Assembly: GCA_017744495.1 (NCBI GenBank)
Contig: JAGIBE010000111.1
Span: 1-64,000 of the forward strand
Length of the DNA stretch: 64,000 nucleotides
Direction: 5' to 3'
Source: Caulobacter sp.
Lineage (GTDB): Bacteria; Pseudomonadota; Alphaproteobacteria; Caulobacterales; Caulobacteraceae
Positions 5,018 through 57,226 of the stretch are shown piece by piece. Made by a program: the position numbers and the translations under genes. The notes under the pieces were generated by a model that had not been told where the DNA came from, did not search any database, and saw only the letters and a program-made list of their open reading frames with translations. Numbering within the stretch: position 1 is the first letter of the stretch; every line of letters starts with the position of its first letter.

Positions 5018-5146
5018 CACTTGTCCCCTACGGATCGCTTCGCGATCGTCTTCCCCCATAGGGAAGAGCCGCGCTAGCCGGCGGCCAGCTCTAGGCTCCG
5101 CCCCCTCGCCGCGACAGACCGCGAAGCGGTCAGGTGGGGGCAAGTG
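5018..5146. repeat. family A-like inverted-repeat element (variant) in convergent gap
   Basis: The 142-bp gap between the converging stops of smc and the TauE gene is almost entirely an imperfect palindrome. The outer arms CACTTGTCCCC (5018-5028) and GGGGCAAGTG (5137-5146) pair. Inside each arm is a small hairpin: GATCGC-TTC-GCGATC near 5033-5047 and GACCGC-GAA-GCGGTC near 5117-5131. The layout (long outer stem plus two inner hairpins) matches the family A elements elsewhere in the window, though the sequence differs. It probably acts as a bidirectional terminator. Confidence 0.7.
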
Positions 5147-5941
5147 TCAGCCCCCGAACATTCCGACGACCGCATGCCTCAACGGATTCCCCGGATCGCT
5201 CAGCAGCTTCACCGCCATGGCGCACGACATCACCACCAAGAGCGGCCGGATCAGCCGGGCCCCGAACCGCATCGCCAGGCGCGAGCCCACCTGCGCCCCG
5301 ATGAAAGCCCCGGCCGCCATGGTCAGCCCCACCGGCCAGACCACCGCGCCCTTCAGAATGAACAGCGCGAGACTCCCCAGGTTCGACGCCGCGTTGGCCA
5401 GCTTGGTATGGGCCGTGGCCTTCAGCGCGCCGTAGCCCAGCAGGGTGACGATGGCCACCATGTAGAAGGCCCCCGCCCCGGGGCCGAAGATCCCGTCATA
5501 GAAGCCGATCAGCGGCGCGACGCAGAAGGCGAAGACCGGCACGGTCAGGCGCGGATGCACGTCCTCGCCCTTAAGCCCCTTCGAGAAGCCGAAATAGAGG
5601 GCGATGACGATCAGCAGGATCGGGACCAGGGCGGCCAGGACGCGCGGCGACAGAAGGCTGGCGCACAGGGCGCCGCACAGGCCGGCGACCGCGGCCGCCC
5701 CGGCGACCGGCAGGGCCGTCTTCCAGTCGATCAGGCCGCGACGGGCGAAGGCCGTGGTGGAGGAGATGGCGCTGACCGCGCCCTGCAGCTTGTTGGTGCC
5801 CAGGGCCGCGACGGGGTTCATGCCGGTCAGCAGCAGGGCCGGCACGGTCAGCAGGCCGCCCCCGCCGGCGATGGCGTCGAACGCCCCGGCGATCGCGGCC
5901 ACGGCGAACATGGTGGCCAGCAGGGCTAGATCGACGTGCAT
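5147..5941 (-). CDS. TauE/SafE (UPF0721/YfcA-like) membrane transporter
   Basis: A 264-aa polytopic membrane protein with about eight hydrophobic segments. It shows the N-terminal AGAFDAIAGGGGLLTVPALL and the mid-protein FYDGIFGPGAGAF repeat typical of the TauE/SafE sulfite/organosulfur exporter family (YfcA branch). I use the ATG at 5941 (MHVDLALL) rather than an upstream in-frame start, because family members begin just before the first membrane helix. The substrate is unknown; the family handles sulfite, sulfoacetate and related anions. It converges on smc, and its stop abuts the palindromic element. Confidence 0.88.
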   Translation of the reverse strand: MHVDLALLATMFAVAAIAGAFDAIAGGGGLLTVPALLLTGMNPVAALGTNKLQGAVSAISSTTAFARRGLIDWKTALPVAGAAAVAGLCGALCASLLSPRVLAALVPILLIVIALYFGFSKGLKGEDVHPRLTVPVFAFCVAPLIGFYDGIFGPGAGAFYMVAIVTLLGYGALKATAHTKLANAASNLGSLALFILKGAVVWPVGLTMAAGAFIGAQVGSRLAMRFGARLIRPLLVVMSCAMAVKLLSDPGNPLRHAVVGMFGG

Positions 5942-6014
5942 AGACTCAAGCCTCGCGTGGTCAGCCCTAAAGCAGGGCCGGGACCACGCGTAGAGCAAGC
6001 GTTAGTTCAGTGGA

Positions 6015-6344
6015 TTACTTCTGGCGCGCCTTGCGGGCGGCGTATTTGGCGTCGCGAGCGGCCTTCTGCTCGGCGGCGGTCAGGGCCTTGCGCTCCTTGC
6101 GCTGGGCGCGCTTCTCGGCGAGGGCCTCTTCTTCCTTGGCCAGGGCGGCCTGGCGGACGGCTTCCTTGGCCGCGGCGCGCTCGGCGCGGACGCGCTCCAG
6201 TTCGGCGTCGCGCTCGGCGTGGCGCTGCTCGAAGTTGGGATCCTGAACGGTGGGCTTCACCTTCATCTTGGCCAGCAAGGCCTTCTTGGCTTCGGCGGCG
6301 GCGGAGATGCGATCGGCGAAGCCGGTGTTCTTCAGATGCGACAT
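6015..6344 (-). CDS. small basic coiled-coil protein, DUF6481-like
   Basis: A 109-aa, highly charged, Ala/Lys/Arg/Glu-rich, predicted all-helical protein. The N-terminus (MSHLKNTGFADRISAAAEAK) followed by KKALLAKMKVKPTVQDPNF resembles the DUF6481 family of small alphaproteobacterial proteins. It has no signal peptide or membrane segment. Family function is unknown; the basic, disordered/helical composition suggests nucleic-acid or ribosome contact, but this is inference. It is a separate unit, 73 bp upstream of the TauE gene on the same strand. Confidence 0.75.
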   Translation of the reverse strand: MSHLKNTGFADRISAAAEAKKALLAKMKVKPTVQDPNFEQRHAERDAELERVRAERAAAKEAVRQAALAKEEEALAEKRAQRKERKALTAAEQKAARDAKYAARKARQK

Positions 6345-6458
6345 GAATCTTCTGGTTGGTGGAAAGTGCGCTCCTAAGACCCCAAAACGCCCCGAAAAGC
6401 AATCGGTGATCCCCGACGCAAAAGGACACAGGTCTCCTCGCGCCGGGGTTTCGAGCCG

Positions 6459-8429
6459 TTATTTCTCGATCCGGTAGACCGCATAGCTGTGCGGGGCGAC
6501 CCGGGCGGCGAACTCGGTGCGGGCCGGGGCGCCCTGGCGGCGCCAGGCGTCGGCCTTGCCGTCGGCCGGCTTGGCCTCGACCACCTGGCCGGTGGAGAGG
6601 TTGCGCAGCTTCACCCCCGACCCCAGCAGCGACAGGTTCACGTCCGTGTCGTCGTCGCGGAACGACTGCACCACGAAGGTCCCGTTGTCGTAGGCGAACA
6701 GGCTGACCCGGTCGGGCGCATCCAGTCGCACCGGGAAGTCGCGCTGCAGGTAGCGCTTGATCTCGGTCGTGACGCCCTGGGGCAGGTTGTAGAGGTCGCC
6801 GGGGTTCTCCGGCATGGTGATCACATAGAGGATCCCGCCGCCGTAGCGGTTCATCAGCAGGATGGGGAAGCCCTTGGCGTTGGCCACGCCCCGGATGATG
6901 CCCCAGCTGTCGTTGGTGTAGAAAGTCAGCTCCGGGAACAGCACCGCCGGGGTCTCGCGCTTGGGATCGTTCAGGCTCTCGCCGTTGCCCGCGCCGTAGC
7001 CGTTCAGGAAGTCGTGCAGGGCCACCTTGCGGCCGGTGTCGCGCACCTCGAGGATGTCCTCGATCCCCTTGCCCTGCAGCGCCGACAGCAGGCCCGAGGT
7101 GATGAACACCGTCTTGCCGGCCGTCAGGTTGCCCTTGATCTCCTCGACGATCCTGGGGTCCTTGGCCGCGGCTTCCGTCAGCAGGGCCACGTCCGCGCCC
7201 TTGGGGAAGTTGGGCGACAGCTCGATGGGAATGCCGACATTGCCCAGATAGTTGTGCAGGAAGTCCTCGCCCGACGACTGGTAGGGCTTATAGCTGGCGA
7301 TCCCGATCGGCTTGCCGAGGTAGCCCAGGTCCTTGTCGATCTTCTCCAGCGACCAGCCGGCCGCGCGGCCCCAGCCGGGACCCGGGTCGTCGGCCTTGCC
7401 GGAGCTCCTGTAGCTGGCGGCCATGGCCTTCCAGTCGAAGCTGGTGGCCTTGTCCTTCCACGGCCGCGCGCCCGGCTCGACCGCCTTGGGCTCGTTCATC
7501 GGCCGCCAGTTGAACAGGGTGATCTCCGGCGCCTTGGCCAACAGGGTGTCCCACAGCTGCTCGGCGTAGCGGTCGACATAGAGGGTGGAGAAGGTGTCGA
7601 CCCAGCCGCCGCCGTTGCCCGGCCCGCCGTTCGATCCCGTGGGCCGGATGTTGTCGTAGTAGCGGATGATCGAATAGCTCTCGTACTGCTGCAGCAGCTG
7701 GTCAGTGATCACCGGATCGCGGGTCTCGGTGCCGGTGTAGATGCCGTCGAACATCTGCGACTGCTTTTCCAGGTCGTAGCCCAGGCCTTGGAAGTGCTCG
7801 TACCAGTTGGGGTACTTGATGATCATCCGGACCTTGGGATTGACCTGCTTGGCCGGGCCCAAGACCAGGTCCTGGCTGACCTTGCGCATGGTCTCCAGGC
7901 GATACTGGGTCCAGGAGCGGTCGCCCTTGGCGGCGATGTCGGCGGGGCTCTTGGACGTGTAGAAGAAGAAGTCGTCGAGGATCACCTCGTCGAAATGCTT
8001 GGCGGCCAGGCGCACGGCCTTCTCGCACTCGGCCCGGTGGGCCGGATTCTCGTAGTCGAAGGTGCCGAACTGGCCGCCCTCGCCGCCGGTCGCCAGGGTG
8101 ATCCCGCCGGCCACCTGCACGCCGCGCGCCTCGAACCAGCCCTTGACCCGCTCGATCTGCTCGTCGGTGGCGAAGTTGCTGCCGCGATAGACCTCCAGAT
8201 AGACCTTGTCGAAGCGTAGCTGGCGGCTGGACCGCTCGAACTGGGCGTCGAACACGGCCTTGTCCGACAGGGCCTTGGCGTCGTTGACGGCGATGTAGAT
8301 GGCCGCGCGGAAGTTCTTGTAGGCGGGCGCCGGCTGGGGCTTGACGGGCGCGGCTTCGGCGAAGGCGGCGGGCGCGAGCAAGGCGCACAGCGCAGCGGCG
8401 CCGAACAGACTGCGGGTGACGTGGATCAT
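6459..8429 (-). CDS. secreted glycosidase-like protein of unknown substrate
   Basis: A 656-aa exported protein. The start at 8429 (MIHVTRSLFG) is chosen because it opens a clean Sec signal peptide cleaved after AFA (residue 24); longer in-frame extensions read through a palindromic repeat and are rejected. The mature N-terminal half has a TIM-barrel feel, with FDEVILDDFFFY, IIKYPNWYEHFQ, FDGIYTGTETRD and FNWRPMNEP blocks, including acidic residues at strand ends as in retaining glycoside hydrolases. The C-terminal half looks like a glutamine-amidotransferase/beta-sandwich tail. I do not recognise a named family. Periplasmic or extracellular polysaccharide processing is a guess. No polysaccharide genes are nearby. 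Confidence 0.6.
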   Translation of the reverse strand: MIHVTRSLFGAAALCALLAPAAFAEAAPVKPQPAPAYKNFRAAIYIAVNDAKALSDKAVFDAQFERSSRQLRFDKVYLEVYRGSNFATDEQIERVKGWFEARGVQVAGGITLATGGEGGQFGTFDYENPAHRAECEKAVRLAAKHFDEVILDDFFFYTSKSPADIAAKGDRSWTQYRLETMRKVSQDLVLGPAKQVNPKVRMIIKYPNWYEHFQGLGYDLEKQSQMFDGIYTGTETRDPVITDQLLQQYESYSIIRYYDNIRPTGSNGGPGNGGGWVDTFSTLYVDRYAEQLWDTLLAKAPEITLFNWRPMNEPKAVEPGARPWKDKATSFDWKAMAASYRSSGKADDPGPGWGRAAGWSLEKIDKDLGYLGKPIGIASYKPYQSSGEDFLHNYLGNVGIPIELSPNFPKGADVALLTEAAAKDPRIVEEIKGNLTAGKTVFITSGLLSALQGKGIEDILEVRDTGRKVALHDFLNGYGAGNGESLNDPKRETPAVLFPELTFYTNDSWGIIRGVANAKGFPILLMNRYGGGILYVITMPENPGDLYNLPQGVTTEIKRYLQRDFPVRLDAPDRVSLFAYDNGTFVVQSFRDDDTDVNLSLLGSGVKLRNLSTGQVVEAKPADGKADAWRRQGAPARTEFAARVAPHSYAVYRIEK

Positions 8430-8534
8430 GACTGGTTTCTTCCCTCGATAGGCCCGCCGACGCGTCGAGGCGACCGGTCCTGGTTGCGGTACCATAGGGT
8501 TGGTATGACAAATGAAGCGAGGGGAATCTTCTGT

Positions 8535-8669
8535 CCCTCCCCCTGTGGGGGAGGTGATCGCGCGGCGATCGGTGGGGGGCGTTAAGGATCGATCGATCCG
8601 AGTTGTGGCCGCCTGCCGATCACTCCCCCCTCCGTCGGCTTCGCCGACACCTCCCCCACAGGGGGAGGA
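8535..8669. repeat. family A inverted-repeat element
   Basis: Outer arms CTCCCCCTGTGGGGGAGG (near 8537) and CACCTCCCCCACAGGGGG (near 8648) are inverted copies, each itself a hairpin. An inner GTCGGC-TTC-GCCGAC hairpin precedes the right arm. This copy lies in the 466-bp gap between divergent genes (secreted protein and atpI), not at a 3' end. The rest of the gap holds the likely atp promoter near 8793-8819 and nothing else I can name. Confidence 0.85.
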
Positions 8670-8792
8670 CCTCGGCTCCCCCAACGGAACCCGGCTTCCC
8701 CGATCACGTAAGGGCGCGCCGATTCCAGGTCGCGCTTCGAAAAACCCCAAAATCCCTTATAAAACCGCCACTTGAGAGTATACCGCCCAGCC

Positions 8793-8819
8793 TTGACGCA
8801 CCGCAGCGCGCCCTATAGG
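8793..8819 (+). promoter_or_regulatory. probable housekeeping promoter of the atp F0 operon
   Basis: TTGACG at 8793-8798 and TATAGG at 8814-8819 are separated by 15 bp. This resembles the Caulobacter housekeeping consensus (TTGACGS, short spacer, then a GCTANAWC-type -10). It lies 77 bp upstream of the atpI start and is the best promoter candidate in this gap. Confidence 0.5.
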
Positions 8820-8895
8820 TTCCGCCGCGATCAAGCCGGCCGGAAATCCGCCTCTATTGGGGCGGCCGCGGGCGTTTTCGGACCTGACCGCACCC

Positions 8896-9288
8896 ATGCC
8901 CAAGGCCGACGAACCGAACGACAAGGCTCCGCAGAGCCTCGACGCTCGGATCGCCGCCTTCGAGGCGCGGAAAGCGGCGGAGCAGCCGGGACGCGCCGAG
9001 CACGAGAAATCGTCCCAGGACGGCTATCGTCTTCTGGCGGATCTGATCGGGGGCGTTCTGGTGGGGCTCGGCTTCGGCTGGCTGCTCGACCGTTACGCCG
9101 GCACGGGGCCTTGGGGCATGGTCGGCGGTCTGCTGATCGGCATGGGGTCCTCGATCTACATCGTCGTCCGCAAGGCGACAAAACTGAGCGCGCAGGCGTC
9201 GTCCCAGGTCCCGGGCAAGGCCCCGGGGGCTTCGGGCGACGAGAACACGGGAGGCGGGTCCACCGCCCCCAAGCAGAAGAGAGACTAG
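8896..9288 (+). CDS. atpI: AtpI-like ATP synthase assembly protein
   Basis: A 130-aa protein with a charged, coiled-coil-like N-terminus (SLDARIAAFEARKAAEQ) followed by two membrane helices (LIGGVLVGLGFGWLLDRYAG and WGMVGGLLIGMGSSIYIVV). This is the AtpI pattern found at the head of F0 operons, where it helps assemble the c-ring. The ATG at 8896 is preferred over an upstream TTG at 8857. It is the first gene of atpI-atpB-atpE-b'-b, with 4 bp to atpB. The F1 genes are not in the window, as is usual in alphaproteobacteria, where F0 and F1 are separate operons. Confidence 0.9.
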   Translation: MPKADEPNDKAPQSLDARIAAFEARKAAEQPGRAEHEKSSQDGYRLLADLIGGVLVGLGFGWLLDRYAGTGPWGMVGGLLIGMGSSIYIVVRKATKLSAQASSQVPGKAPGASGDENTGGGSTAPKQKRD

Positions 9289-9292
9289 GGCC

Positions 9293-10084
9293 TTGGCCAC
9301 GCCGATCGACCCGATGCACCAGTTCATGATCCAGAAGATCGTGGAGCTGCCGTCCGTGACTGTCCCGGGCCTGGGCGCGATCGATCTGTCGATCACCAAC
9401 TCGATCGCCGCCATGCTGCTGTCGGCGTTCCTGATCATCACCTTCTACGCCTTCGCGGGCAAAGGCGCCGTGGTTCCCGGCCGCCTGCAGACCGTGGGCG
9501 AGATGCTCTATGGCATCGTCGACGGCCTCACGAGCTCGATCATCGGCCACGACGGCAAGAAGTACCTGCCGTTCGTCTTCAGCCTGTTCGCCTTCGTGCT
9601 GTTCGCCAACCTGCAGGGCATGCTGTTCGGCTGGACCGGCAACTTCCTGGGCTTCACCTCGACCTCGCAGCTGGCCGTGACCCTGACGCTGGGCATCATG
9701 GTCATCCTGACCGTGATCGCCGTCGGCTTCGCCAAGAACGGCCTGAAGTTCTTCAAGCTCTTCGCCCCGTCGGGCGTGCCGTGGCCCCTGCTGTTCCTGC
9801 TGGTGCCGATCGAGTTCATCTCGTTCCTGATCCGCCCGATCACCCTGGCGCTCCGTCTGTTCGGCAACATGCTGGGCGGCCACGTGGTGCTGAAGATCTT
9901 CGCGACCTTCGTGGCCATCCTGCTGGCCATGGCCCCGGCCTACTGGCTGGTGGGCATCCTGTCGCTGACCTCCGTCGTCGCCCTGACGGCCCTAGAGTTC
10001 ATGGTGGCCTTCCTTCAGGCCTTCGTGTTCGCGGTGCTCACCTGCGTCTATCTGAACGACGTCGTGCACCTCGACAGCCACTGA
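9293..10084 (+). CDS. atpB: ATP synthase F0 subunit a
   Basis: A 263-aa polytopic inner-membrane protein forming the proton half-channels of F0. It carries the hallmark LALRLFGNMLGGH segment with the essential Arg (residue 188 with the TTG start). A glutamine-containing final helix (FLQAFVFAVLTCVYL) is also present. The start is taken as TTG at 9293 because the reading then begins (M)ATPIDPMHQF, the expected N-terminus; an ATG at 9314 would shorten it by seven residues. It lies 4 bp after atpI and 51 bp before atpE. Confidence 0.96.
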   Translation: MATPIDPMHQFMIQKIVELPSVTVPGLGAIDLSITNSIAAMLLSAFLIITFYAFAGKGAVVPGRLQTVGEMLYGIVDGLTSSIIGHDGKKYLPFVFSLFAFVLFANLQGMLFGWTGNFLGFTSTSQLAVTLTLGIMVILTVIAVGFAKNGLKFFKLFAPSGVPWPLLFLLVPIEFISFLIRPITLALRLFGNMLGGHVVLKIFATFVAILLAMAPAYWLVGILSLTSVVALTALEFMVAFLQAFVFAVLTCVYLNDVVHLDSH

Positions 10085-10135
10085 TCACCCTTTAGTCTTC
10101 CAACCAACACAGCCTTCTCTACAGGAGTTTCAACT

Positions 10136-10363
10136 ATGGACGCTTCCGCCGCTAAGTTCATCGGCGCCGGCCTGGCCATGCTCGGCATGATCGGCGCGGG
10201 CATCGGCCTCGGCATCATGTTCGGCAACTACTTCCAAGGCGCCCTGCGCAACCCGACCGCGGCCGCTCAAGAGCGTCCGATGCTGTTCCTGGGCATGGCT
10301 CTGACCGAAGCCCTGGGCATCTTCGCCCTGGTCATCGCCTTCCTGATCCTGTTCTCGAAGTGA
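10136..10363 (+). CDS. atpE: ATP synthase F0 subunit c
   Basis: A 75-aa proteolipid hairpin of two membrane helices. The first has the glycine-rich packing motif (MIGAGIGLGIMFG). The polar loop is RNP (38-40). The second has the proton-carrying carboxylate Glu58 (ALTEALGIFALVIAF). It forms the c-ring rotor. A strong SD (ACAGGAG) sits 9 bp upstream. It is directly followed by a 17-bp perfect hairpin before the b' gene, which may boost or stabilise atpE relative to the downstream b genes, in line with the higher copy number of subunit c. Confidence 0.98.
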   Translation: MDASAAKFIGAGLAMLGMIGAGIGLGIMFGNYFQGALRNPTAAAQERPMLFLGMALTEALGIFALVIAFLILFSK

Positions 10364-10368
10364 TAACC

Positions 10369-10406
10369 CTGGGGCGCGGCGGTCCTGAAGGACCGCCGCG
10401 CCCCAG
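10369..10406 (+). terminator. strong intercistronic hairpin after atpE
   Basis: A perfect 17-bp stem with a TGAA tetraloop starts 5 bp after the atpE stop (left arm 10369-10385, loop 10386-10389, right arm 10390-10406; core GGGGCGCGGCGG). No U-tract follows, and the b' gene starts 60 bp later. It is therefore more likely an mRNA-stabilising or attenuating structure than a full terminator. Confidence 0.75.
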
Positions 10407-10465
10407 AACCGTTCTTCGAGCCTTCCCGTCCGGTGAAGGCTCCAAACTAAGAGGCTTCTTCGCCC

Positions 10466-11002
10466 ATGGCGACGGAACATCACGGCACGGTCGAGTCGAC
10501 CGAAGCCGCTCACGGGCAGGAAAGCGGCGGGCTTCCCCAGCTGCAGTTCCAGCACTGGGGCGGCCAGATCGTCTGGCTTGTGCTCATCTTCGCCGTTCTC
10601 TATGCGGTGCTGTCCAAGGCGCTCCTGCCTCGGGTCAGCGGCGCGATCGAGACCCGCGGGGCCAAGATCGCCGGCGACATCGCCGACGCCCGTCGTCTGA
10701 AGGACGAAGCCGAGGTGCAGGCGCGCGCGGCCGCCGCCGAGGTGGCCGAGGCTCGCGCCAAGGCCCAGAAGACCGCGGCGGACGCCAAGGCCAAGGCTTC
10801 GGCCGAAGCCGCCGAGCGTCAGGCGAAGGAAGAGGCCGCGCTGGCTGAGAAGCTGGCCGCCGCCGAAGGCCGCATCCAGGCCGCTCGCGACGAGGCCATG
10901 AGCCACGTCCGCGTAGTGGCTTCGGAAACGGCCGGCGCCATCGTCGAGAAGCTGACGGGCAAGGCGGCTTCGGCCGCCGAGCTCAAGGCCTCGCTGGCCT
11001 AA
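10466..11002 (+). CDS. atpF2: ATP synthase F0 subunit b' (second b-type subunit)
   Basis: A 178-aa peripheral-stalk subunit. An N-terminal hydrophilic lead of about 28 residues is followed by one membrane helix (IVWLVLIFAVLYAVLSKALLPRV) and a long Ala/Lys/Glu-rich helix that pairs with subunit b. Photosynthetic bacteria and alphaproteobacteria carry two different b-type genes in tandem, and the first is b'. The next gene (b) starts 12 bp downstream. Name usage varies (atpF', atpG, atpX). Confidence 0.93.
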   Translation: MATEHHGTVESTEAAHGQESGGLPQLQFQHWGGQIVWLVLIFAVLYAVLSKALLPRVSGAIETRGAKIAGDIADARRLKDEAEVQARAAAAEVAEARAKAQKTAADAKAKASAEAAERQAKEEAALAEKLAAAEGRIQAARDEAMSHVRVVASETAGAIVEKLTGKAASAAELKASLA

Positions 11003-11014
11003 GGAGAGACGACG

Positions 11015-11524
11015 ATGGAACACGAAGCCCTCTTCGATCTCGCCAATCCCGAGCTGTGGGTCCTGATCGGCCTGGCCCTGTTCATCGGCCTGCTGGTCGT
11101 GCTCAAGGTCTTGCCGGGCGCGCTCTTCAAGGCGCTGGACGCCCACGCCGAGAAGATCCAGGCGGAACTCGACGAAGCCCACCAATTGCGGGAAGAGGCC
11201 CAGGCCCTGCTCGCCGAGGTGAAGGCCCAGCGCGACGAAGCCGAACGCCAGGCGGCCGGCATGCTGGAAGCCGCCAAGGCCGACGCCGCGCTGATCGCGT
11301 CGGAAGCCAAGGCCAAGCTGGAAGAGCAGATCGCCCGCCGCGCCGAAATGGCCGAGCGCAAGATCGCCCAGGCCGAGGCCCAGGCCGCCGCCGACGTCAA
11401 GTCGGCCGCTGTCGACCTCGCCGCCCAGGCCGCCGAACAGGTCCTGGTCGCCCGCCTCGCGGCCGGCGCCTCGGACGGCCTCGTCGACACGGCGATCGGC
11501 CAGATCGGTTCGAAGCTGCAATAG
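11015..11524 (+). CDS. atpF: ATP synthase F0 subunit b
   Basis: A 169-aa peripheral-stalk subunit. It has a short N-terminus, one membrane helix ([19 protein letters not shown]), then a charged coiled-coil domain ending in a small delta-contacting tail. It is the last gene of the F0 operon, preceded by an SD (AAGGAGA) and followed within 30 bp by a good intrinsic terminator. Together with b' it forms the heterodimeric stator. Confidence 0.95.
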
Positions 11525-11549
11525 CGGTTTCGGATACGGCGAAAGACAG

Positions 11550-11587
11550 AAGGGCGCGCTCCTCACGGGGCGCGCCCTTTTCTCTTC
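11550..11587 (+). terminator. intrinsic terminator of the atp F0 operon
   Basis: A GC-rich hairpin (AGGGCGCG ... CGCGCCCT) is followed by TTTTCTCTT, 26 bp after the atpF stop. This is a classic Rho-independent terminator. A family A element follows immediately. Confidence 0.85.
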
Positions 11588-11756
11588 GCCCTCTCCCAGG
11601 GGGAGAGGGAGGGACCTAAGCGAAGCTTGGGAGGGTGAGGGGGTAAAACGTCCGACGGCGTGCCGGCAGGGCGTCTGCGAGACATCGGCGAGGGTGTAAC
11701 CCCTCACCCTCCCACCGCTACGCGGCGGGCCCCGCCCTCTCCCTCTGGGAGAGGGT
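11588..11756. repeat. family A inverted-repeat element
   Basis: Left arm CCCTCTCCCAGGGGGAGAGG (near 11590) and right arm CCCTCTCCCTCTGGGAGAGG (near 11735) are inverted copies. Each is internally palindromic, with GGGAGGGTGAGGGG and CCCCTCACCCTCCC inner arms. It fills most of the gap between the convergent atpF and the downstream minus-strand gene, ending six bases before that gene's stop. Confidence 0.88.
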
Positions 11757-11762
11757 TTCAAG

Positions 11763-17217: not shown

Positions 17218-17264
17218 GCTTTGGGCTCCAATCGGGGTCGGCGACGCCGCCCGGCTTTCGCCAG

Positions 17265-17458
17265 GTGGTCTCGCCCCCGCTGTCCCTTTGACCTGAGAGA
17301 TTCCGGCCTTCCGCGAAGAGGGCCTTGCTCCTTCGGCGGGCAGCCGTTCCCGACTGCCTCTTTCCAGCGTTCCTAAACCCGCGCGGTCCTTTTGCCTGAG
17401 CGTTTCCGGGGCGGTTGCGCCTTCGGCCTCGGGACCAGAATCCCGATGTCTCCCGCGG
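17265..17458 (-). promoter_or_regulatory. tandem glycine riboswitch upstream of gcvT
   Basis: On the minus strand the leader holds two glycine-aptamer cores in tandem. The first is CGCTCAGGCAAAAGGACCG (about 17383-17401), the second AATCTCTCAGGTCAAAGGGA (about 17282-17301). They are joined by a short linker and flanked by GC-rich P1 stems (GGGAGAC near 17450). This arrangement is the classic cooperative glycine riboswitch, which turns on gcv expression when glycine is abundant. It fills the 311-bp interval between ispH and gcvT. I cannot tell from sequence whether control is at transcription or translation. Confidence 0.93.
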
Positions 17459-17469
17459 GGGTCGAGGCG

Positions 17470-17498
17470 TGTTTGGGCGACGGTGCGGGCGGAGTCAA
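17470..17498 (-). promoter_or_regulatory. possible promoter of the gcv operon
   Basis: On the minus strand a TTGACT hexamer (plus-strand 17493-17498) precedes the first aptamer by about 40 bp. The matching -10 region is weak (CAAACA near 17470-17475). It is placed correctly for the riboswitch leader. Confidence 0.35.
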
Positions 17499-17528
17499 CG
17501 GGGAAGGCGTCGGCCCGCCGACGAAGCC

Positions 17529-18500: not shown

Positions 18501-18682
18501 GGCCCCGAACCTAAGGGTTTCGCGCCCCCCGCGCCAGCGCCGGACCGGTCCCTGCGCGAAAAGACCGCCGCATCCTGTTGAAACCTGCTGTACATTGCGA
18601 CGTCACGCATATGCCTTTATCAGGCTCCATGACGCTGGCGGGGATTTCCCGCTCAAGCTTTCCATCTCGAACCGGACGTTTC

Positions 18683-21219: not shown

Positions 21220-21227
21220 CCCCCGCC

Positions 21228-21254
21228 GGGACGCTCGAGTTTCTTGAGCGTCCC
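21228..21254 (+). terminator. terminator after argS
   Basis: Stem GGGACGCTC (21228-21236) and GAGCGTCCC (21246-21254) form a perfect 9-bp hairpin 8 bp after the argS stop. The downstream U-tract is weak (CTTTTC about 15 bp later), so efficiency is uncertain. Confidence 0.6.
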
Positions 21255-21344
21255 GAGCGAACTTCAGCTTTTCTCGGGGACGACCGACGAAAAGCACGCC
21301 TCCGCGCTCTTGACCGCCAGCGCCCGGTCCCGCATCCCCGCGCC

Positions 21345-22753: not shown

Positions 22754-22761
22754 CTACCGCT

Positions 22762-22839: not shown

Positions 22840-22895
22840 GTTCTAGGAACATTTCGGCCGGTTCACGGATTCGCTTCGACACAGGAGGTGAACCC

Positions 22896-23081: not shown

Positions 23082-23088
23082 GCCCGCC

Positions 23089-23310
23089 ATGCCCTCATCG
23101 GTCATCAAGGCTTGGCGCTATGACTCGGAGGGCGCGGTCCTGACGATCACCTTCGTCAGTGGCCGCGCCTACGCGTACCAGGCCGTGCCCGCCGATGTCG
23201 CCGAGGGCTTCCGCCTGGCCTTCGCCAAGGGCGAGTACTTCAACCGGGCGATCCGCGACCGCTATCCGGCCATCCGGACCGTGGAGCCCGAGCAACTGCC
23301 CTTGCTCTAG
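23089..23310 (+). CDS. KTSC-domain protein
   Basis: A 73-aa protein matching the KTSC domain over its full length: SSVIKAWRYDSEG, then LTITFVSGRAYAYQAVP, and the end block AFAKGEYFNRAIRDRYP. KTSC domains are small beta-rich modules found alone or fused to nuclease/synthetase-like proteins; role unknown. It lies 7 bp after the 61-aa gene, likely co-transcribed, and its stop is 2 bp before a family B element. Confidence 0.88.
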   Translation: MPSSVIKAWRYDSEGAVLTITFVSGRAYAYQAVPADVAEGFRLAFAKGEYFNRAIRDRYPAIRTVEPEQLPLL

Positions 23311-23312
23311 CC

Positions 23313-23392
23313 GGGGACATGTCCTTGCGGCGTGTCCCCAACAGCTAGCGCCGGGGCCTGGACCTGGGGACACGCCGCAAGGGCATGTCCCC
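23313..23392. repeat. family B inverted-repeat element, copy 2
   Basis: The 27-bp arms at 23313-23339 and 23366-23392 are separated by a loop containing AGCTAGCGCCGGGGCCTGGA. The element starts immediately after the KTSC gene stop. The left arm has one substitution (ATGTCC for ATGCCC) relative to the consensus. Confidence 0.93.
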
Positions 23393-23449
23393 TCCGCGCG
23401 CCCATCCGTCGCATGCCGCCCCCCGGGGACGGCTCCCCATATGTAGGTG

Positions 23450-23821: not shown

Positions 23822-23848
23822 AACAATCACGGAACATCCGGAGTCGAC

Positions 23849-25114
23849 ATGGCCAGACGCGCGGGCAGCGCCGACCTTCCTTTGCACAGCGGACACGTGC
23901 CGCCCTGGCTGGCCCAGCGGATGACGCGGCTGGGGGCGGTGATCAGCCAGGCCATCGTCCACCACTACGGCCGCGACGAGCTGCTGAGCCGCCTGGCCCA
24001 TCCGTTCTGGTTCCAGTCGTTCGGGGCGGTGATGGGCATGGATTGGCACTCCTCCGGCATCACCACGAGCGTGCTGGGTTCGCTCAAGCGGGGCCTCGCC
24101 CCTCTGTCGGGTGAGCTGGGGATCCATGTCTGCGGCGGACGCGGCAAGCATTCGCGCCAGACCCCGGCCGAGCTGATCGCGGTGGGCGAGCGCGTCGGCC
24201 TGGACGGCGCGGCCCTGGCCCAGGCCAGCCGGCTGGTGGCCAAGGTCGACAGCGCCGCCGTCCAAGACGGCTTCGACCTCTATCTGCATGGCTTCATCGT
24301 CGCCGACGACGGCCAGTGGGTGGTGGTCCAGCAGGGCATGAACGATGAACGCCGCCAGGCGCGGCGCTACCACTGGAGCTCGCGCGAGCTGAAGAGCTTC
24401 GTCGACGCCCCGCACGCGGCGATCGAGGGGCGCGGACATGGCGAGATCGTCAACCTGACTGACCGCCGGGCCGACGCCTCGCGAGCGGCCCAGATCCACA
24501 TGCTGCAGGCGCTGGGTCCCGACGGCGTGGCGCGCGAGGCCGTCAAGCTGGCCGCCGCCGAGGCGCCGCCGCCGGCCCAGGCGACGCTGCCTCACCTGGT
24601 CATGCCCGACCATCACGACGTCCGGCCCGAGGACGTCGTCACGCGCCGGCTCCACGGCGCGTTGGCGGCCGCCGCCGAGCAGGGGCCCAAGGATTTCTCC
24701 GATCTGTTGATGGTTCCGGGCGTCGGCGCCCGCACGGTGCGGACCCTGGCCATGGTCGCCGAGGTCGTGCACGGCGCGCCCTGCCGGTTCAGCGACCCGG
24801 CCCGCTTCTCCCTGGCCCTGGGCGGCAAGGACCGGCATCCGTTCCCGGTGCCGACCAAGGTCTATGACGAGACCATCCGTGTGCTGAAGGCCGCCGTGGA
24901 GAGCGCCAAGCTGGGCCACGAGGAGACCCTGGGCGCCATCCGCCGCCTGGACGACCAAGCCCGCCGCCTGGAACGCGTGGCCGACGGTCCGTCGGTCAAG
25001 GCCTATATCGCCCAGGAGCGCGCCGCCTCGCCCTCGTACGGCGGCCGCAGCGTGTTCGGCTGGGAGAGCGACTTGGTCGGGGACATGCCCTCGCGGCGTG
25101 TCCCCGACCGCTAG
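23849..25114 (+). CDS. DUF763 protein with helix-hairpin-helix-like motif
   Basis: A 421-aa protein matching DUF763 along its length: RAGSADLPLHSGHVPPWLA, FGAVMGMDWHSSGITTSVLG, CGGRGKHSRQTP and VVVQQGMNDERRQARRYHW. Around residues 285-310 lies VPGVGARTVRTLAMVAEVV, which looks like a helix-hairpin-helix DNA-contact motif. The family occurs in bacteria and archaea, and its activity is unknown; a nucleic-acid-linked role is my inference. The last 11 residues (GDMPSRRVPDR) and the stop come from a family B palindrome, so the natural C-terminus has been replaced or extended. Confidence 0.88.
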   Translation: MARRAGSADLPLHSGHVPPWLAQRMTRLGAVISQAIVHHYGRDELLSRLAHPFWFQSFGAVMGMDWHSSGITTSVLGSLKRGLAPLSGELGIHVCGGRGKHSRQTPAELIAVGERVGLDGAALAQASRLVAKVDSAAVQDGFDLYLHGFIVADDGQWVVVQQGMNDERRQARRYHWSSRELKSFVDAPHAAIEGRGHGEIVNLTDRRADASRAAQIHMLQALGPDGVAREAVKLAAAEAPPPAQATLPHLVMPDHHDVRPEDVVTRRLHGALAAAAEQGPKDFSDLLMVPGVGARTVRTLAMVAEVVHGAPCRFSDPARFSLALGGKDRHPFPVPTKVYDETIRVLKAAVESAKLGHEETLGAIRRLDDQARRLERVADGPSVKAYIAQERAASPSYGGRSVFGWESDLVGDMPSRRVPDR

Positions 25115-25157
25115 CGCCGCGCCTGGACTTGGGGACACGCCGCAAGGGCATGTCCCC
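25079..25157. repeat. family B inverted-repeat element, copy 3 (overlaps DUF763 3' end)
   Basis: Arms at 25079-25105 and 25131-25157. The left arm is translated as the end of the DUF763 protein, whose TAG (25112-25114) sits in the loop (CTAGCGCCG). The right arm ends 13 bp before the stop of the converging rhodanese gene. Confidence 0.93.
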
Positions 25158-25170
25158 GGCAGCACCCAGC

Positions 25171-27898: not shown

Positions 27899-27910
27899 AC
27901 CCCTCTCGCC

Positions 27911-27943
27911 CCGTCATCCTCGGACTTGTTCCGAGGATGACGG
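27911..27943. repeat. family C single-hairpin repeat
   Basis: A perfect 14-bp stem (CCGTCATCCTCGGA at 27911-27924, its complement at 27930-27943) with a CTTGT loop, 12 bp after the VOC gene stop. It is the basic unit of the larger family C elements. Confidence 0.9.
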
Positions 27944-29175: not shown

Positions 29176-29307
29176 TCCTCCCCCTGTGGGGGAGGCGTCG
29201 GCGAAGCCGACGGAGGGGTGAGTGATCTGCAGGCGGCGACAACCCGGATCGCCGATCCGGATACTCCCCCCACCGGTCTTCGGCCACCTCCCCCACAAGG
29301 GGGGACC
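29176..29307. repeat. family A inverted-repeat element
   Basis: Left arm TCCTCCCCCTGTGGGGGAGG (29176-29195) and right arm near 29287-29307 are inverted copies. GTCGGC-GAA-GCCGAC is an inner hairpin. It fills the 140-bp gap between the converging oxidoreductase and TetR genes. Confidence 0.9.
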
Positions 29308-33945: not shown

Positions 33946-33956
33946 TTTCCCAACGC

Positions 33957-34096
33957 CCCGTCATCCTCGGACTTGTTCCGAGGACCCCTCTATCCGTTGG
34001 TTTGCCGCTGGGGTTGGTCCGCGACCTCAACGCTCCACGGATCATCCTTCTTCTCGGCTGAAACAGGGGTCCTCGGAACAAGTCCGAGGATGACGG
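33957..34096. repeat. family C inverted-repeat element
   Basis: Left arm (from 33957: CCCGTCATCCTCGGACTTGT, then TCCGAGGACCCC) and right arm (34065-34096) are inverted copies, each a hairpin. The middle holds no gene. The gap to the ABC transporter gene (287 bp) contains otherwise only a short possible leader. Confidence 0.92.
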
Positions 34097-34232
34097 AGCG
34101 TAGGGTGAGCATGGTGGGAAACCACAAACTTCCGCTCATACCGCTCATGAGCCCTAGCCAAGTCAGCTTAACCGCCCCATCTGCGACGCGCGGCTTCGCT
34201 CCGGGAGGGGGCGGACGCAGCCCAGGACAGCC

Positions 34233-35924: not shown

Positions 35925-36076
35925 TCCTCTCCCCGAGGGAGAGGGCGAGACCCGCCGCGAAGCGGTGGGAGGGTGAGGGGTTACACCCTCACCAACTTCG
36001 TGCCGGCTCTCCGGCTGACATTGTAGCCCCTCACCCGACCCGCTTCGCGGGCCACCCTCCCCCTCTGGGAGAGGGA
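35925..36076. repeat. family A inverted-repeat element
   Basis: Left arm CCTCTCCCCGAGGGAGAGG (near 35926) and right arm CCCTCCCCCTCTGGGAGAGG (near 36055). Inner arms are CCGCCGCGAAGCGGTGGGAG and CCCGACCCGCTTCGCGGGCC. It fills the gap between the converging ABC permease and NfeD genes. Confidence 0.9.
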
Positions 36077-36081
36077 TTAGG

Positions 36082-39765: not shown

Positions 39766-39772
39766 TCTGCCT

Positions 39773-39886
39773 TCCCTCCCCCTTGTGGGGAGGGGGGACC
39801 AGCGAAGCTGGTGGGTGGGGCCTGCTGACTCAGAACACCTCACCCGACCCGCTACGCGGGCCACCCTCCCCACAAGGGGGAGGGAC
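39773..39886. repeat. family A inverted-repeat element
   Basis: Left arm CCCTCCCCCTTGTGGGGAGG (near 39774) and right arm CCCTCCCCACAAGGGGGAGG (near 39863), with CCAGCGAAGCTGG and CCCGCTACGCGGG inner hairpins. It fills the gap between converging crp-like and nitronate monooxygenase genes. Confidence 0.9.
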
Positions 39887-39897
39887 AAGACGGATTT

Positions 39898-40863: not shown

Positions 40864-40973
40864 GGGGTCTCCTCCCAGGCTTTTCGGGCTGGTGTCTCGG
40901 GGAGGATGAGCGCTGTTCCGGAGGGCGGAAAGCGTGCCGCGAGGGCAGGCCGAAAACCTCTCCAAACTCATTC

Positions 40974-41100
40974 GTCATTCCGGGCCTTGTGCCCGGAAGC
41001 CCTCTGTCCGCCGCAAGTGCGGATGGGTGGCGCGCTTGCGCGCCAAAGCGCTGCACATGCGAGCTGAACGAGGGGTTCCGGGCACAAGGCCCGGAATGAC
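40974..41100. repeat. family D inverted-repeat element
   Basis: Left arm GTCATTCCGGGCCTTGTGCC (from 40974) and right arm (41072-41100) are inverted copies, each a hairpin. An internal GCGCGCTTGCGCGCC hairpin lies between. It is related to family C (same GTCATyC..CTTGT layout) and sits in the 287-bp gap between the NMO gene and a small ORF, which holds nothing else I can name. Confidence 0.9.
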
Positions 41101-41150
41101 GGCCGTTGAATGTGGAAATTCCATCGACCGATCAGGTGAGCGCGAAGAGA

Positions 41151-44741: not shown

Positions 44742-44757
44742 GCGGACTCCCACGACC

Positions 44758-44836
44758 GGGGACATGCCCTTGCGGCGTGTCCCCATCAGCTAGCACCGAG
44801 CCAAGACTTGGGGACACGCCGCGAAGGCATGTCCCC
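44758..44836. repeat. family B inverted-repeat element, copy 4
   Basis: Arms at 44758-44784 and 44810-44836, 27 bp each, with loop ATCAGCTAGCACCGAGCCAA then GACTT. It lies 8 bp past the 3-hydroxybutyrate dehydrogenase stop and 17 bp before the patatin start (both minus strand). Confidence 0.93.
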
Positions 44837-44844
44837 GGCCGGAC

Positions 44845-54812: not shown

Positions 54813-54844
54813 CTTGCACCAAAGAAATTGGGCCGAGCTTGGCC

Positions 54845-54930
54845 GGGGACATGCCCTTGCGGCGTGTCCCCAGATCCAGGCTCGGCCCCACGGTGCGTCG
54901 GTTGGGGACACGCCGCAAGGGCATGTCCCC
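54845..54930. repeat. family B inverted-repeat element, copy 5
   Basis: Arms at 54845-54871 and 54904-54930 with a 32-bp loop. Between the converging acyl-CoA dehydrogenase and peroxiredoxin stops, 32 and 11 bp from them. Both arms match the consensus. Confidence 0.93.
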
Positions 54931-54941
54931 GGCCCAGAACC

Positions 54942-55424
54942 CTACAGCTGCGCCAGCAGGTAGTCCGCCGACGAAACCTTGAATTCCCCGGCCTCTTCGA
55001 CGTTCAGGCTCTCGACCACGCCGTCCTTGGCGACCAGCGAGTAGCGCTGCGAGCGCGTGCCCATGCCGAACTTGGAGCCGTCGAAGTCCAGGCCGATGGC
55101 GCGGGTGAAGTCGCCGTTGCCGTCGGCCAGCAGCAGGACCTCGTCGGTGATGCCCTGATCGGCCGCCCAGGCCTTCATCACGAAGACGTCGTTGACCGAG
55201 ACGCAGGCGATCACATCCACGCCCTTGGCCTTGAGTTCGGCGGCCTTCTCCTTGAAGCCCGGCAGGTGCTTGGCCGAGCAGGTCGGGGTGAAGGCGCCCG
55301 GCACCGCGAACAGGGCCACGGTCTTGCCCTTGAACAGGTCGTCGGTCGTGACCGGAGCCGGCCCCTCGGCCGTGCTGGTCATGAAAGTGGCCGAAGGAAG
55401 CTTGTCGCCAACCTTGATCGTCAT
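54942..55424 (-). CDS. peroxiredoxin (Prx5/AhpC-TSA type)
   Basis: A 160-aa thiol peroxidase. Catalytic Cys49 is in VPGAFTPTCSAKHLPGF; a second Cys74 lies in VIACVSVND. DLFKGKTVALFAVPG and LLADGNGDFTRAIGLD are typical of Prx5-type (atypical or 1-Cys) enzymes that reduce organic peroxides. The start at 55424 (MTIKVGDKLPSATF) is the family N-terminus. Confidence 0.95.
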   Translation of the reverse strand: MTIKVGDKLPSATFMTSTAEGPAPVTTDDLFKGKTVALFAVPGAFTPTCSAKHLPGFKEKAAELKAKGVDVIACVSVNDVFVMKAWAADQGITDEVLLLADGNGDFTRAIGLDFDGSKFGMGTRSQRYSLVAKDGVVESLNVEEAGEFKVSSADYLLAQL

Positions 55425-55553
55425 GTGCGGTGTCCCTGGATGCGTTGAGGCTTGTATCATTTGTAAGCGCGCCCCCGAGATAAAGGCGTCAAGAGCGATC
55501 GCCAAGGGCAGGTTGGACTTGAAACCGACGCGTTCCGATCCGATCCTCTGATC

Positions 55554-56165
55554 ATGGACATCTATCGCGAGGCTCACCCAACCAAGGATCTATCGGAGAA
55601 CGGGACCGGCTTCCTGGCCGGGCAGATGCTGGTGGCCATGCCGGGCATCGAGGACCCCCGCTTCGAACGCGCCGTGCTCTATGTCTGCGCCCACGACGCC
55701 GAGCAGGCCATGGGACTGGCGGTCAACCGCCCGGTCGAGGGCCTGACCCTTTACGAGCTGCTCAACAATCTGGGGGTCGCCCCGGAGATCGAGACCGGGG
55801 GAGACCTGGTCATGCTGGGCGGGCCGGTCGAGCGCGAGCGGGGTTTCGTGCTGCACACCGACGACTATGTCTCGCCCGACTCCACCGTGCCGGTGGCCGA
55901 CGGCCTGGCCCTGACCGTCACCCGCGACGCCCTGGACGCCCTGGGCAGCAAGATCCGCCGCCCCCGCCACGCCATACTGGCCCTGGGTTATTCGGGCTGG
56001 GGCCCCGGGCAGCTGGAGCAGGAACTGCGCGACAATGTCTGGCTGATCTGCGAGGCCGACGAAGCGCTACTATTCGGCGACGACTACGACAACAAATGGA
56101 CCATGGCCCTGGCCAAGATCGGAATCACCGCCGATCACCTATCGTCGCAAGCGGGTAGAGCTTGA
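55554..56165 (+). CDS. YqgE/AlgH family protein
   Basis: A 203-aa protein matching YqgE/AlgH (DUF179): FLAGQMLVAMPGIEDPRFER, AMGLAVNRPVEGLTLYELL, YGGPVE-type motif (here LGGPVERERGFVLH), and ILALGYSGWGPGQLEQEL. The family is widespread, with unclear biochemical function. The gene is divergent from the peroxiredoxin gene with a 129-bp shared region. Confidence 0.94.
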   Translation: MDIYREAHPTKDLSENGTGFLAGQMLVAMPGIEDPRFERAVLYVCAHDAEQAMGLAVNRPVEGLTLYELLNNLGVAPEIETGGDLVMLGGPVERERGFVLHTDDYVSPDSTVPVADGLALTVTRDALDALGSKIRRPRHAILALGYSGWGPGQLEQELRDNVWLICEADEALLFGDDYDNKWTMALAKIGITADHLSSQAGRA

Positions 56166-56328
56166 GTACTGCTCCAAGAAGACCAGGCCCTAAAAACTAG
56201 TAATCCACCTTATTATTCTGACCAGCGTGGGCGCGTATACTCCGCCATAGTCACGCTGTTGCTTTTCAAGCCGTCATTGGGGACCCGGCTCGCGCGCGCA
56301 TGCGGGACGTGTGGGTCAGGACAGTGGC

Positions 56329-57180
56329 ATGGCTTACCTCCGGCTGACATCCCCGTCGAACGACAACTGGGCGACCCGGGACGATCGCAACCCGCCGCCG
56401 GACAACTGGGGACAGCGCCGCTACGGCGTGATGCCGCCGCCCCGCCGCCCCTTCGCCGGCAACATCCTCTTGGGCATGATCGCCATGCCGATGGGCGTTT
56501 GGGGCCTGTGGCTGATGCTGGGCGCCGGTCCGGCCGAGACCAGCCCCCAGCCGCTGGTCTTTCAGGTGCCGCCGCCGCAGGTTGCCACCCTTGGCGATCC
56601 CTCCGGTGTGTACGGCGAGGCGGCGGCCCCGACCGCCGACGACCGGCGCGGCCTGAAGATCGTGCTCAGCACCGACGCCCGCCCCGTGACCCATCCGGAG
56701 ACCTGGGGCGCCTTGCCGACCGCCGTCGGCGCGCCGGTGGCGGCCGCGCCCCTGGCCGACGCCCTGCCGGCGGCGGACACCGCCGCCTGCCGCGACGCCC
56801 CGACCCTGGCGGCCCAGATGACCTGCATCGACCCCGCCCTGCGCGAGGCCGAGGCGCGGATGGCCCTGGCCTATGAGGCGGTGCTCGCGGCGGGAGTCCC
56901 GCCCTCGGCCCTGGGCCGCTCGCAGGCCCGCTGGCTGGCTGTCCGCGACGCCATGGCCCAGGCCTCGCCCGAGAACCTGCTGACCGCCTACCAGCAGCGC
57001 GAAAGCCAGCTGCGCGGCTACGCCGTGGCGTGGGAGCAGCGGACGGGGTCGGTGGGCTCGGCGCCGCCTCTGCCCGATCCCTCCACGCCCGTCATCCTCG
57101 GACTTGTTCCGAGGACCCCTTCGTCGGCTGCGAAGAAGGTGGACGAGCGGGCGGAGGCGCCGGCGGTCGCTCGGACATGA
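56329..57180 (+). CDS. LprI-like membrane-anchored protein with repeat-encoded C-terminus
   Basis: A 283-aa protein. A Pro-rich cytosolic N-terminus is followed by one membrane helix (NILLGMIAMPMGVWGLWLML) and a Pro/Ala linker. The periplasmic domain matches LprI/DUF1311 (CRDAPTLAAQMTCIDPALRE then AEARMALAYEAVLAAG, RSQARWLAVRDAMAQ), the fold of lysozyme-inhibitor LprI. ATG 56329 is preferred; an in-frame GTG at 56311 is possible. The last 29 or so residues (from [10 protein letters not shown]) and the stop are encoded by a family C repeat, so the tail is not part of the ancestral domain. Confidence 0.8.
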   Translation: MAYLRLTSPSNDNWATRDDRNPPPDNWGQRRYGVMPPPRRPFAGNILLGMIAMPMGVWGLWLMLGAGPAETSPQPLVFQVPPPQVATLGDPSGVYGEAAAPTADDRRGLKIVLSTDARPVTHPETWGALPTAVGAPVAAAPLADALPAADTAACRDAPTLAAQMTCIDPALREAEARMALAYEAVLAAGVPPSALGRSQARWLAVRDAMAQASPENLLTAYQQRESQLRGYAVAWEQRTGSVGSAPPLPDPSTPVILGLVPRTPSSAAKKVDERAEAPAVART

Positions 57181-57226
57181 CATCACGACGGAACGAGGGG
57201 TCCTCGGAACAAGTCCGAGGATGACG
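57089..57226. repeat. family C inverted-repeat element (overlaps LprI-like 3' end)
   Basis: Left arm 57089-57120 and right arm 57196-57226 are inverted copies of the GTCATCCTCGGACTTGTTCC unit. The LprI-like frame enters the left arm and stops at 57178-57180 between the arms. The element lies 30 bp before the converging pdeA stop. Confidence 0.93.

What the first reader, a model, noticed from the sequence alone, without database searches (positions are those of the whole stretch)
5018..57226. Every open convergent gap carries a long inverted-repeat element
I count 12 convergent gene pairs. Eight have gaps longer than 20 bp (smc/TauE, atpF/11763, DUF763/rhodanese, MocA/TetR, ABC/NfeD, Crp/NMO, ACAD/Prx, LprI/pdeA). 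All eight contain an element of family A, B or C. The other four pairs have gaps of 13 bp or less or overlapping stops. The families differ in sequence but share the same layout of paired, self-folding arms. This points to selection for bidirectional transcription termination or collision control, served by interchangeable element families.
Basis: partly seen in the sequence, partly recalled or inferred. Interest (0 to 1): 0.8.

Follow-up and report, generated by a model that had tools for sequence, protein, structure and literature searches.

The report
Swappable palindromes capping gene ends
In Caulobacter bacteria, many of the open spaces where two genes end facing each other hold one self-folding DNA repeat, and close relatives carry unrelated repeat families in the very same space, so these repeats are likely interchangeable caps that would protect or define the ends of both messages.

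Summary
The window (Caulobacter) has 12 convergent pairs; all 8 with gaps over 20 bp hold a long palindromic repeat. The excess is real: outside the window, in about 2.7 Mb from six genomes, repeats lie in 219/310 open convergent, 228/1043 co-directional and 36/430 divergent gaps. "Every" is local: 18/37 in the rest sampled of this genome, 12/25 in 400 kb of a relative. Repeats sit a median 10-13 nt from stop codons, at similar rates per gene 3' end in convergent (0.25) and co-directional gaps (0.19-0.21), and the repeat itself opens the gap. The new result is interchange: at conserved convergent gaps 143 of 235 between-species comparisons have a repeat on both sides, of different families in 80, yet two families share a gap in only 6/223 (37 doubles expected if ends were independent). 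All eight window gaps show swaps, the smc gap only at genus depth. Likely role (inferred, no RNA data): an exchangeable 3'-end hairpin serving both mRNAs. REP-like repeats and their convergent bias were known; my searches found no report of one-per-gap family replacement.

The parts
5020..5146 (.). family D element in the convergent gap smc/TauE (5005-5146)
   Evidence: D also in G060, G051, G007, G002 at this gap
11589..11756 (.). family C2 element in the convergent gap atpF/11763 (11525-11762), downstream of an intrinsic-terminator-like hairpin
   Evidence: relatives carry C1 or D here
25075..25159 (.). family A element at the convergent gap DUF763/rhodanese (25115-25170); left arm lies inside the called DUF763 gene end
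   Evidence: right border of a 4-gene island; orthologous gap holds A, E or H elsewhere
29177..29305 (.). family C1 element in the convergent gap MocA/TetR (29174-29313)
   Evidence: relatives carry A or E
35925..36075 (.). family C2 element in the convergent gap ABC/NfeD (35915-36081)
   Evidence: relatives carry A
39771..39885 (.). family C2 element in the convergent gap Crp/NMO (39766-39897)
   Evidence: relatives carry D or a 5-bp gap
54838..54937 (.). family A element in the convergent gap ACAD/Prx (54813-54941)
   Evidence: relatives carry A or D
57090..57226 (.). family B (CGTC-tagged) element at the convergent gap LprI/pdeA (57181-57255); left arm inside the called gene end
   Evidence: relatives carry B, E or C1
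22759..22840 (.). family A element, co-directional gap, left border of the island
23310..23401 (.). family A element, co-directional gap inside the island
44753..44841 (.). family A element, co-directional gap
63169..63262 (.). family A element, co-directional gap
27909..27943 (.). single family B hairpin, co-directional gap
33949..34105 (.). family B element, co-directional gap
40968..41101 (.). family B element, co-directional gap
8535..8675 (.). family C1 element, divergent gap
59682..59814 (.). family B element, divergent gap

Best explanation
Palindromic repeats of ten sequence families sit a median of about 10 bases from stop codons, rarely more than one family per convergent gap, and stand in for one another at the same gap in sister species; their transcripts would fold into GC-rich hairpins that likely cap and protect mRNA 3' ends, one symmetric repeat serving both convergent mRNAs. 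Shown: position after stops, deficit of double occupancy, different families at orthologous gaps, stems better conserved than spacers, scarcity of ordinary terminators beside elements. Inferred: that the repeats spread as mobile REP/MITE-like units; that RNA polymerase is released by Rho or another factor and the hairpin then stops 3' exonucleases, as described for E. coli REPs; that selection keeps one cap per gene end but is indifferent to which family supplies it.
For: Elements start a median 10 nt (convergent) or 13 nt (co-directional) from the stop; 127/141 co-directional elements are nearer the upstream stop than the next start. At 63 conserved convergent gaps, 235 comparisons: same family 63, different 80, one-sided 39, none 53, against 15, 97, 101, 23 when states are permuted within genomes; open gaps only 63, 78, 8, 9. 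Two families in one convergent gap 6/223, 37 doubles expected if the two ends were independent; 3 of 231 element spans exceed 180 bp. Same-family orthologous stems diverge 0.049 per site against 0.222 in spacers and 0.286 in flanks (convergent); 0.042, 0.209, 0.251 (co-directional); double stem changes 7 (6 Watson-Crick) vs 2.0 expected, and 7 (7) vs 1.5. Perfect hairpins in 90/91 family D ends despite several stem sequences. Terminator-like sites outside the element: 9/236 co-directional gaps with an element vs 112/744 without; convergent 28/223 vs 21/67. A passage in PMC13289151 describes E. coli REPs as hairpins that stabilise RNA 3' ends without terminating.
Against: No RNA data. Among convergent comparisons the different-family class (80) is not above its permuted value (97); the departure is in one-sided states (39 vs 101) and same-family states (63 vs 15). 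Where one species has the element and the orthologue lacks it, the latter has a terminator no more often (16/99) than gaps without elements in either (115/734, co-directional). After the G049 inversion both new convergent junctions lack elements (65 bp with a terminator, and 11 bp), so they are dispensable. Stem conservation shrinks when the same family is not required (0.128 vs 0.244) and when spacers are limited to 0.25 divergence (0.105 vs 0.151); repeat-to-repeat conversion could also conserve stems.
Confidence: 0.5

Rival explanations
1. Tolerance: the repeats are selfish mobile palindromes that persist only where they do least harm, just after stop codons and away from promoters; convergent gaps offer two such places, and no host function is involved.
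For: Rate per gene 3' end nearly equal in convergent and co-directional gaps; divergent gaps nearly free (36/433); an insertion opens a closed gap (pair 40/41 in G051); the strict family A pattern is abundant in only two of 41 genomes.
Against: Deficit of doubly filled gaps (6 vs 37); among open conserved convergent gaps only 8 one-sided and 9 empty of 158 comparisons; stems conserved and pairing kept.
Confidence: 0.3
2. Bidirectional transcription termination or collision control specific to convergent genes.
For: Convergent gaps are richest in elements per gap (223/453 vs 230/1506); symmetric arms fold on both strands; the elements and canonical terminators tend to exclude one another.
Against: Near-parity per 3' end with co-directional gaps; stem constraint equal in co-directional copies (0.042 vs 0.049); a terminator call that needs the element occurs in 30/223 convergent and 19/236 co-directional gaps, about the level of whole shuffled gaps (29 and 17); many convergent pairs have no room for any element.
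Confidence: 0.13
3. Hairpin landing pads: new repeats insert preferentially into an existing palindrome or terminator hairpin, and the old one is then lost, so the same gap is refilled without any need for function.
For: Insertion sequences that target REPs are known (PMC1525189, passages); at ACAD/Prx the A element of G000/G049 lies where G060 and G051 have an intrinsic terminator, with part of its A-tract retained.
Against: Composite gaps are rare (6/223); element-free orthologues of occupied sites are not enriched for terminators (16/99 vs 115/734).
Confidence: 0.07

Closest known systems
CGTC-tagged REPs (Di Nocera et al. 2013, PMC3733652; abstract, passages and section 15 seen)
   Same: Family B begins CGTCAT, folds as a short hairpin with a 5-base loop, forms inverted dimers; the paper names C. 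crescentus among CGTC-positive species, finds no dedicated transposase, and reports convergent REPs mostly within 20 bp of both stops.
   Different: Families A, C1, C2, D, F, H and I lack the CGTC tag; the paper's text (search for 'orthologous': 0 hits) does not treat swapping at orthologous gaps.
Enterobacterial REP/BIME hairpins at mRNA 3' ends
   Same: GC-rich hairpins without a U-tract near stop codons, described as stabilising RNA 3' ends (PMC13289151, passages); likely works like this.
   Different: Here many families take turns at one gene end; no comparison with E. coli was run.
REPIN/RAYT and TIR-flanked tyrosine transposase systems
   Same: Family I copies flank the only Y1 transposase gene found in G049.
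   Different: No such gene found in G000, G007, G051 or G002; family I arms are one long hairpin rather than two REPs.
Caulobacter CIR repeats (Chen and Shapiro 2003; seen only through passages of PMC2229807)
   Same: About 110 bp, intergenic, two inverted arms with a linker, abundant in Caulobacter.
   Different: The defining GANTC site is absent from most copies here.
General stem-loop bias to convergent gaps (PMC1590033, passages)
   Same: Stem-loops prefer convergent gaps and the 50 bp after stops in all bacteria studied there.
   Different: Not tied to repeat families or to exchange between species.

Membership tests
CGTC-REP (family B) | unpaired CGTC (or TGTC/CCTC) tag at one end | tested here: met
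   B arms begin CGTCAT in the window copies
CGTC-REP (family B) | 8-9 bp stem, 4-5 base loop, short tail | tested here: met
   TCCTCGGA-CTTGT-TCCGAGGA read in the sequence; the published tail consensus CCA is only approximated (CCCCT)
CGTC-REP (family B) | head-to-head dimers | tested here: met
   33949-34105, 40968-41101, 57090-57226, 59682-59814 are inverted pairs; 27909-27943 is single
REPIN/RAYT (family A) | RAYT gene flanked by the same repeat in the genome | tested here: not met
   no PF01797 match in G000 (85% complete) or G007
Y1-transposase-flanking repeat (family I) | copies on both sides of a Y1 transposase gene | tested here: met
   L261 1316-1388 and 2064-2130 around the gene in G049; the match in G060 (L262) has none
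CIR repeat | conserved GANTC site | tested here: not met
   elements with GANTC: A 0/84, B 4/55, C1 10/65, C2 15/68, D 1/54, E 10/64, F 1/31, G 1/44, H 3/24, I 1/17
Intrinsic terminator | stem followed by a U-tract | tested here: not met
   terminator call needing the element in 30/223 convergent and 19/236 co-directional gaps; whole shuffled gaps 29 and 17
RNA 3'-end stabiliser | RNA 3' ends at the element from both sides | not testable with these tools
   no transcript data held

The most novel reading that the evidence does not exclude
Caulobacter gene ends form a lasting set of sockets, each filled by one of at least ten unrelated mobile palindromes; selection keeps the socket filled while the family turns over between sister species, so selfish repeats have jointly become the genus's generic, swappable 3'-end machinery for convergent and single transcription units.
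Probability: 0.4. Interest if true: 0.8.

Novelty: new variant of a known kind. Interest (0 to 1): 0.6.

Why it matters
What REP-like repeats are for is an old open question. Here sister species have already done the exchange experiment: the same gene ends carry unrelated palindromes. That makes 'selfish and tolerated' versus 'useful 3'-end part' directly testable: swap one family for another at a single gap and measure the RNA ends. It also warns that gap length and convergent orientation are largely consequences of the repeat and of counting gaps rather than gene ends, not independent evidence for termination.

Tried and rejected
Collision control specific to convergent genes: rejected as the main cause because the rate per gene 3' end is close in co-directional gaps. 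'Open gaps need an element': reversed, because element length accounts for the gap. Length-matched comparison: kept only as a first look, since the element itself makes the length. Intrinsic terminator: no U-tract excess. CIR membership: GANTC test failed. RAYT as mobiliser of A: none found in G000 or G007. Regex family scan: abandoned, it missed known copies and had shuffled hits; signature-only labels hit 247 of 2463 shuffled gaps and were not used for final counts. The ungapped inverted-repeat scan alone finds 5 of the 8 window convergent elements, so final counts use BLAST to an element library (shuffled gaps with a hit 27 of 2463 at 30 bits, 9 at 34; 32 used). Three window elements were added to that library and match themselves; one search shows that each also matches other copies.

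Limits: genes were called with my own script, not NCBI annotation; gaps over 700 bp (600) were dropped. The six genomes' syntenic regions, and all pairwise comparisons, are not independent. In one search contigs C110, C144, C220, C230, C245 and C268 were picked because they hold family A, and C213 because of a protein match; the G007 1-400 kb block was not picked by content. L181 was fetched but not used; L180 gave no genes. Family labels partly merge under single linkage (A with B; C1, C2, D; F with H), and A/I labels are uncertain in some double-family gaps. For the smc gap, 27 of the 80 fetched loci were examined and 18 classified; the nine left out are more distant, seven without a convergent neighbour called and two (L037, gap 685; L049, gap 192) convergent, in whose gaps I saw no element in the part printed.

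Paper searches that listed nothing on family replacement at orthologous gaps; the library lacks most subscription papers.
Full report
What was checked. The window is contig C111 of a 290-contig, 85%-complete assembly whose SMC protein is 97% identical to that of Caulobacter sp. UNC358MFTsu5.1. My gene calls give 72 genes and 12 convergent pairs; eight gaps exceed 20 bp, the other four are -4, -4, -4 and 13 bp. All eight open gaps hold a long inverted-repeat element; other open gaps do in 10 of 43 (p = 6.9e-5). Family A (GGGGACAYG...CRTGTCCCC arms) lies at 25075 and 54838, B (CGTCAT...) at 57090, C2 at 11589, 35925 and 39771, C1 at 29177, and a further family D at 5020 in the smc gap. Outside convergent gaps there are four A, three B and one weak C2 call in co-directional gaps, and one C1 and one B in divergent gaps.

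Is it a rule? I took stretches of six related genomes (about 2.8 Mb with the window) and examined 2463 gaps of up to 700 bp. 343 have an inverted repeat scoring 14 or more, 321 of them in sequence clusters of two or more. With BLAST to an element library, outside the window, 219/310 open convergent, 228/1043 open co-directional and 36/430 open divergent gaps hold an element; orthologous gaps of different genomes are counted separately here. The rest sampled of G000 gives 18/37, 14/129 and 3/57; G007 1-400 kb gives 12/25, 14/149 and 1/43. So the enrichment is general and large, but 'every' holds only in the window.

What determines position. Elements start a median 10 nt from the stop in convergent gaps and 13 nt in co-directional gaps; 127 of 141 co-directional elements are nearer the upstream stop than the next start. 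Per gene 3' end the rate is 0.246 in convergent gaps and 0.19-0.21 in co-directional gaps, taking as transcription-unit ends those whose residual gap is at least 40, 60, 80 or 100 bp. Subtracting the element leaves convergent gaps with a median of 16 bp, against 12 bp in element-free ones. The unit of interest is therefore the 3' end, and the element opens the gap. A direct case: pair 40/41 has overlapping stops in G000, G049 and G002, but in G051 an entire B element stands between the two stops.

Interchange. Most of the window is syntenic in G049, G060, G051, G007 and G002 (median protein identity to G000 91-95%). States in the order G000/G049/G060/G051/G007/G002: smc/TauE D, rearranged, D, D, D, D. 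atpF C2, rearranged, C1, C1, D, C1. MocA/TetR C1, A, not convergent, E, not convergent, E. ABC/NfeD C2, A, other gene, A, A, A (one arm). Crp/NMO C2, D, other neighbour, 5 bp, other neighbour, D. ACAD/Prx A, A, D, D, other neighbour, D. LprI/pdeA B, E, overlap, B, left gene absent, C1. The eighth gap, DUF763/rhodanese, is the right border of a 4-gene island; without the island the gap between the same outer neighbours holds A in G049, E in G051 and H in G002, and other genes in G060 and G007.

Over 63 conserved convergent gaps, 235 comparisons give same family 63, different 80, one-sided 39, none 53. Permuting states within genomes gives 15, 97, 101 and 23. Open gaps only: 63, 78, 8, 9 against 16, 108, 32, 2. 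So different-family pairs are not in excess of permutation as such. What departs is the scarcity of one-sided states and the inherited same-family ones: leaving same-family pairs aside, 80 of 119 comparisons with an element have one on both sides, against about 97 of 198 permuted (computed). Co-directional gaps show a stronger site effect: 54, 72, 138, 948 against 4, 36, 365, 806. Divergent gaps: 12, 11, 25, 295 against 1, 4, 71, 268. Gaps thus tend to be persistently filled or persistently unfilled, while the family changes.

One per gap. If each 3' end of a convergent pair were filled independently at the rate that gives 223/453, 37 gaps should hold two elements. Six hold two families, and 3 of 231 element spans exceed 180 bp. 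Between G000 and its sister G049, four of the five convergent gaps filled in both differ in family.

Structure. In orthologous same-family copies stems diverge 0.049 (convergent) and 0.042 (co-directional) per site, spacers 0.222 and 0.209, flanks 0.286 and 0.251; divergent copies 0.107, 0.239 and 0.204. Double stem changes are 7 (6 keeping Watson-Crick pairing) against 2.0 expected, and 7 (7) against 1.5. Without requiring the same family the convergent contrast is 0.128 vs 0.244, and with spacers limited to 0.25 divergence 0.105 vs 0.151, so part may be ascertainment. The end hairpins of family D are perfect in 90 of 91 ends while the stem sequence varies.

Terminators. Outside the element, terminator-like hairpins with a T-run occur in 9/236 co-directional gaps with an element and 112/744 without; convergent 28/223 and 21/67 (gaps of 40 bp or more). 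A terminator call that needs the element is found in 30/223 and 19/236, close to whole shuffled gaps (29, 17). Against substitution: where one species has the element and another does not, the latter has a terminator in 16/99 ordered co-directional comparisons, no more than gaps without elements in either (115/734).

Reading. The account I commit to is an exchangeable RNA 3'-end cap: a GC-rich hairpin just after the stop that would protect or define the mRNA end after factor-dependent release, one symmetric element serving both mRNAs of a convergent pair. The description of E. coli REPs in PMC13289151 (passages) fits. That step is inferred. Pure tolerance of selfish palindromes remains a serious rival, since it explains position and per-end rates; it explains less well the rarity of empty and double states among open conserved gaps and the stem conservation.

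Known versus new. CGTC-REPs, the naming of C. crescentus as CGTC-positive, and the nearness of convergent and unidirectional REPs to stops are published (PMC3733652: abstract, passages, section 15). A preference of stem-loops for convergent over divergent gaps in all bacteria studied is published (PMC1590033, passages). REP targeting by insertion sequences is published (PMC1525189, passages). CIR repeats are known to me only through passages of a review (PMC2229807). New, as far as searches show, are the exchange of unrelated families at orthologous gene ends, the deficit of double occupancy, and the link of one Caulobacter family (I) to a Y1 transposase gene.

Noticed in passing
window 5005-11762 versus G049:C5 (L122-L125): The segment TauE to atpF (genes 3-10) is inverted in G049, with both breakpoints in the two convergent gaps that carry elements in G000; both new junctions (65 bp and 11 bp) lack elements.
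   Followed up: partly
window 22759-25159: A 4-gene island (22896-25114, with KTSC and DUF763 proteins) without orthologues at this place in the five relatives is bracketed and split by three family A copies; in G049, G051 and G002 the same place is a plain convergent gap with one element (A, E, H), and in G007 it holds a different set of 11 genes.
   Followed up: partly
L261 1316-2130 (G049:C5 near 262786): The only Y1 transposase (PF01797) gene found in G049 is flanked by two family I repeats, the second of which overlaps the 3' end of the gene.
   Followed up: partly
window 17218-21344: Genes 17-19 are in one orientation in G000 and G049 and inverted in G060, G051, G007 and G002, with co-directional gaps at both ends.
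   Followed up: no
window 54942-59578 versus G007 (L136-L137): Genes 62-66 are inverted in G007, one breakpoint being the ACAD/Prx convergent gap that carries an A element in G000.
   Followed up: no
G000 and G007: The strict family A pattern occurs 35 times in G000 and 29 in G007 but at most 3 times in any of the other 39 genomes searched.
   Followed up: no
window 54813-54941 and G060, G051, G002 orthologues: At ACAD/Prx, the gaps of G000 and G049 start with a short remnant resembling the first bases of family D (CTTGC..CC), where G060, G051 and G002 have D, and their A element lies where G060 and G051 have a two-sided intrinsic terminator.
   Followed up: no
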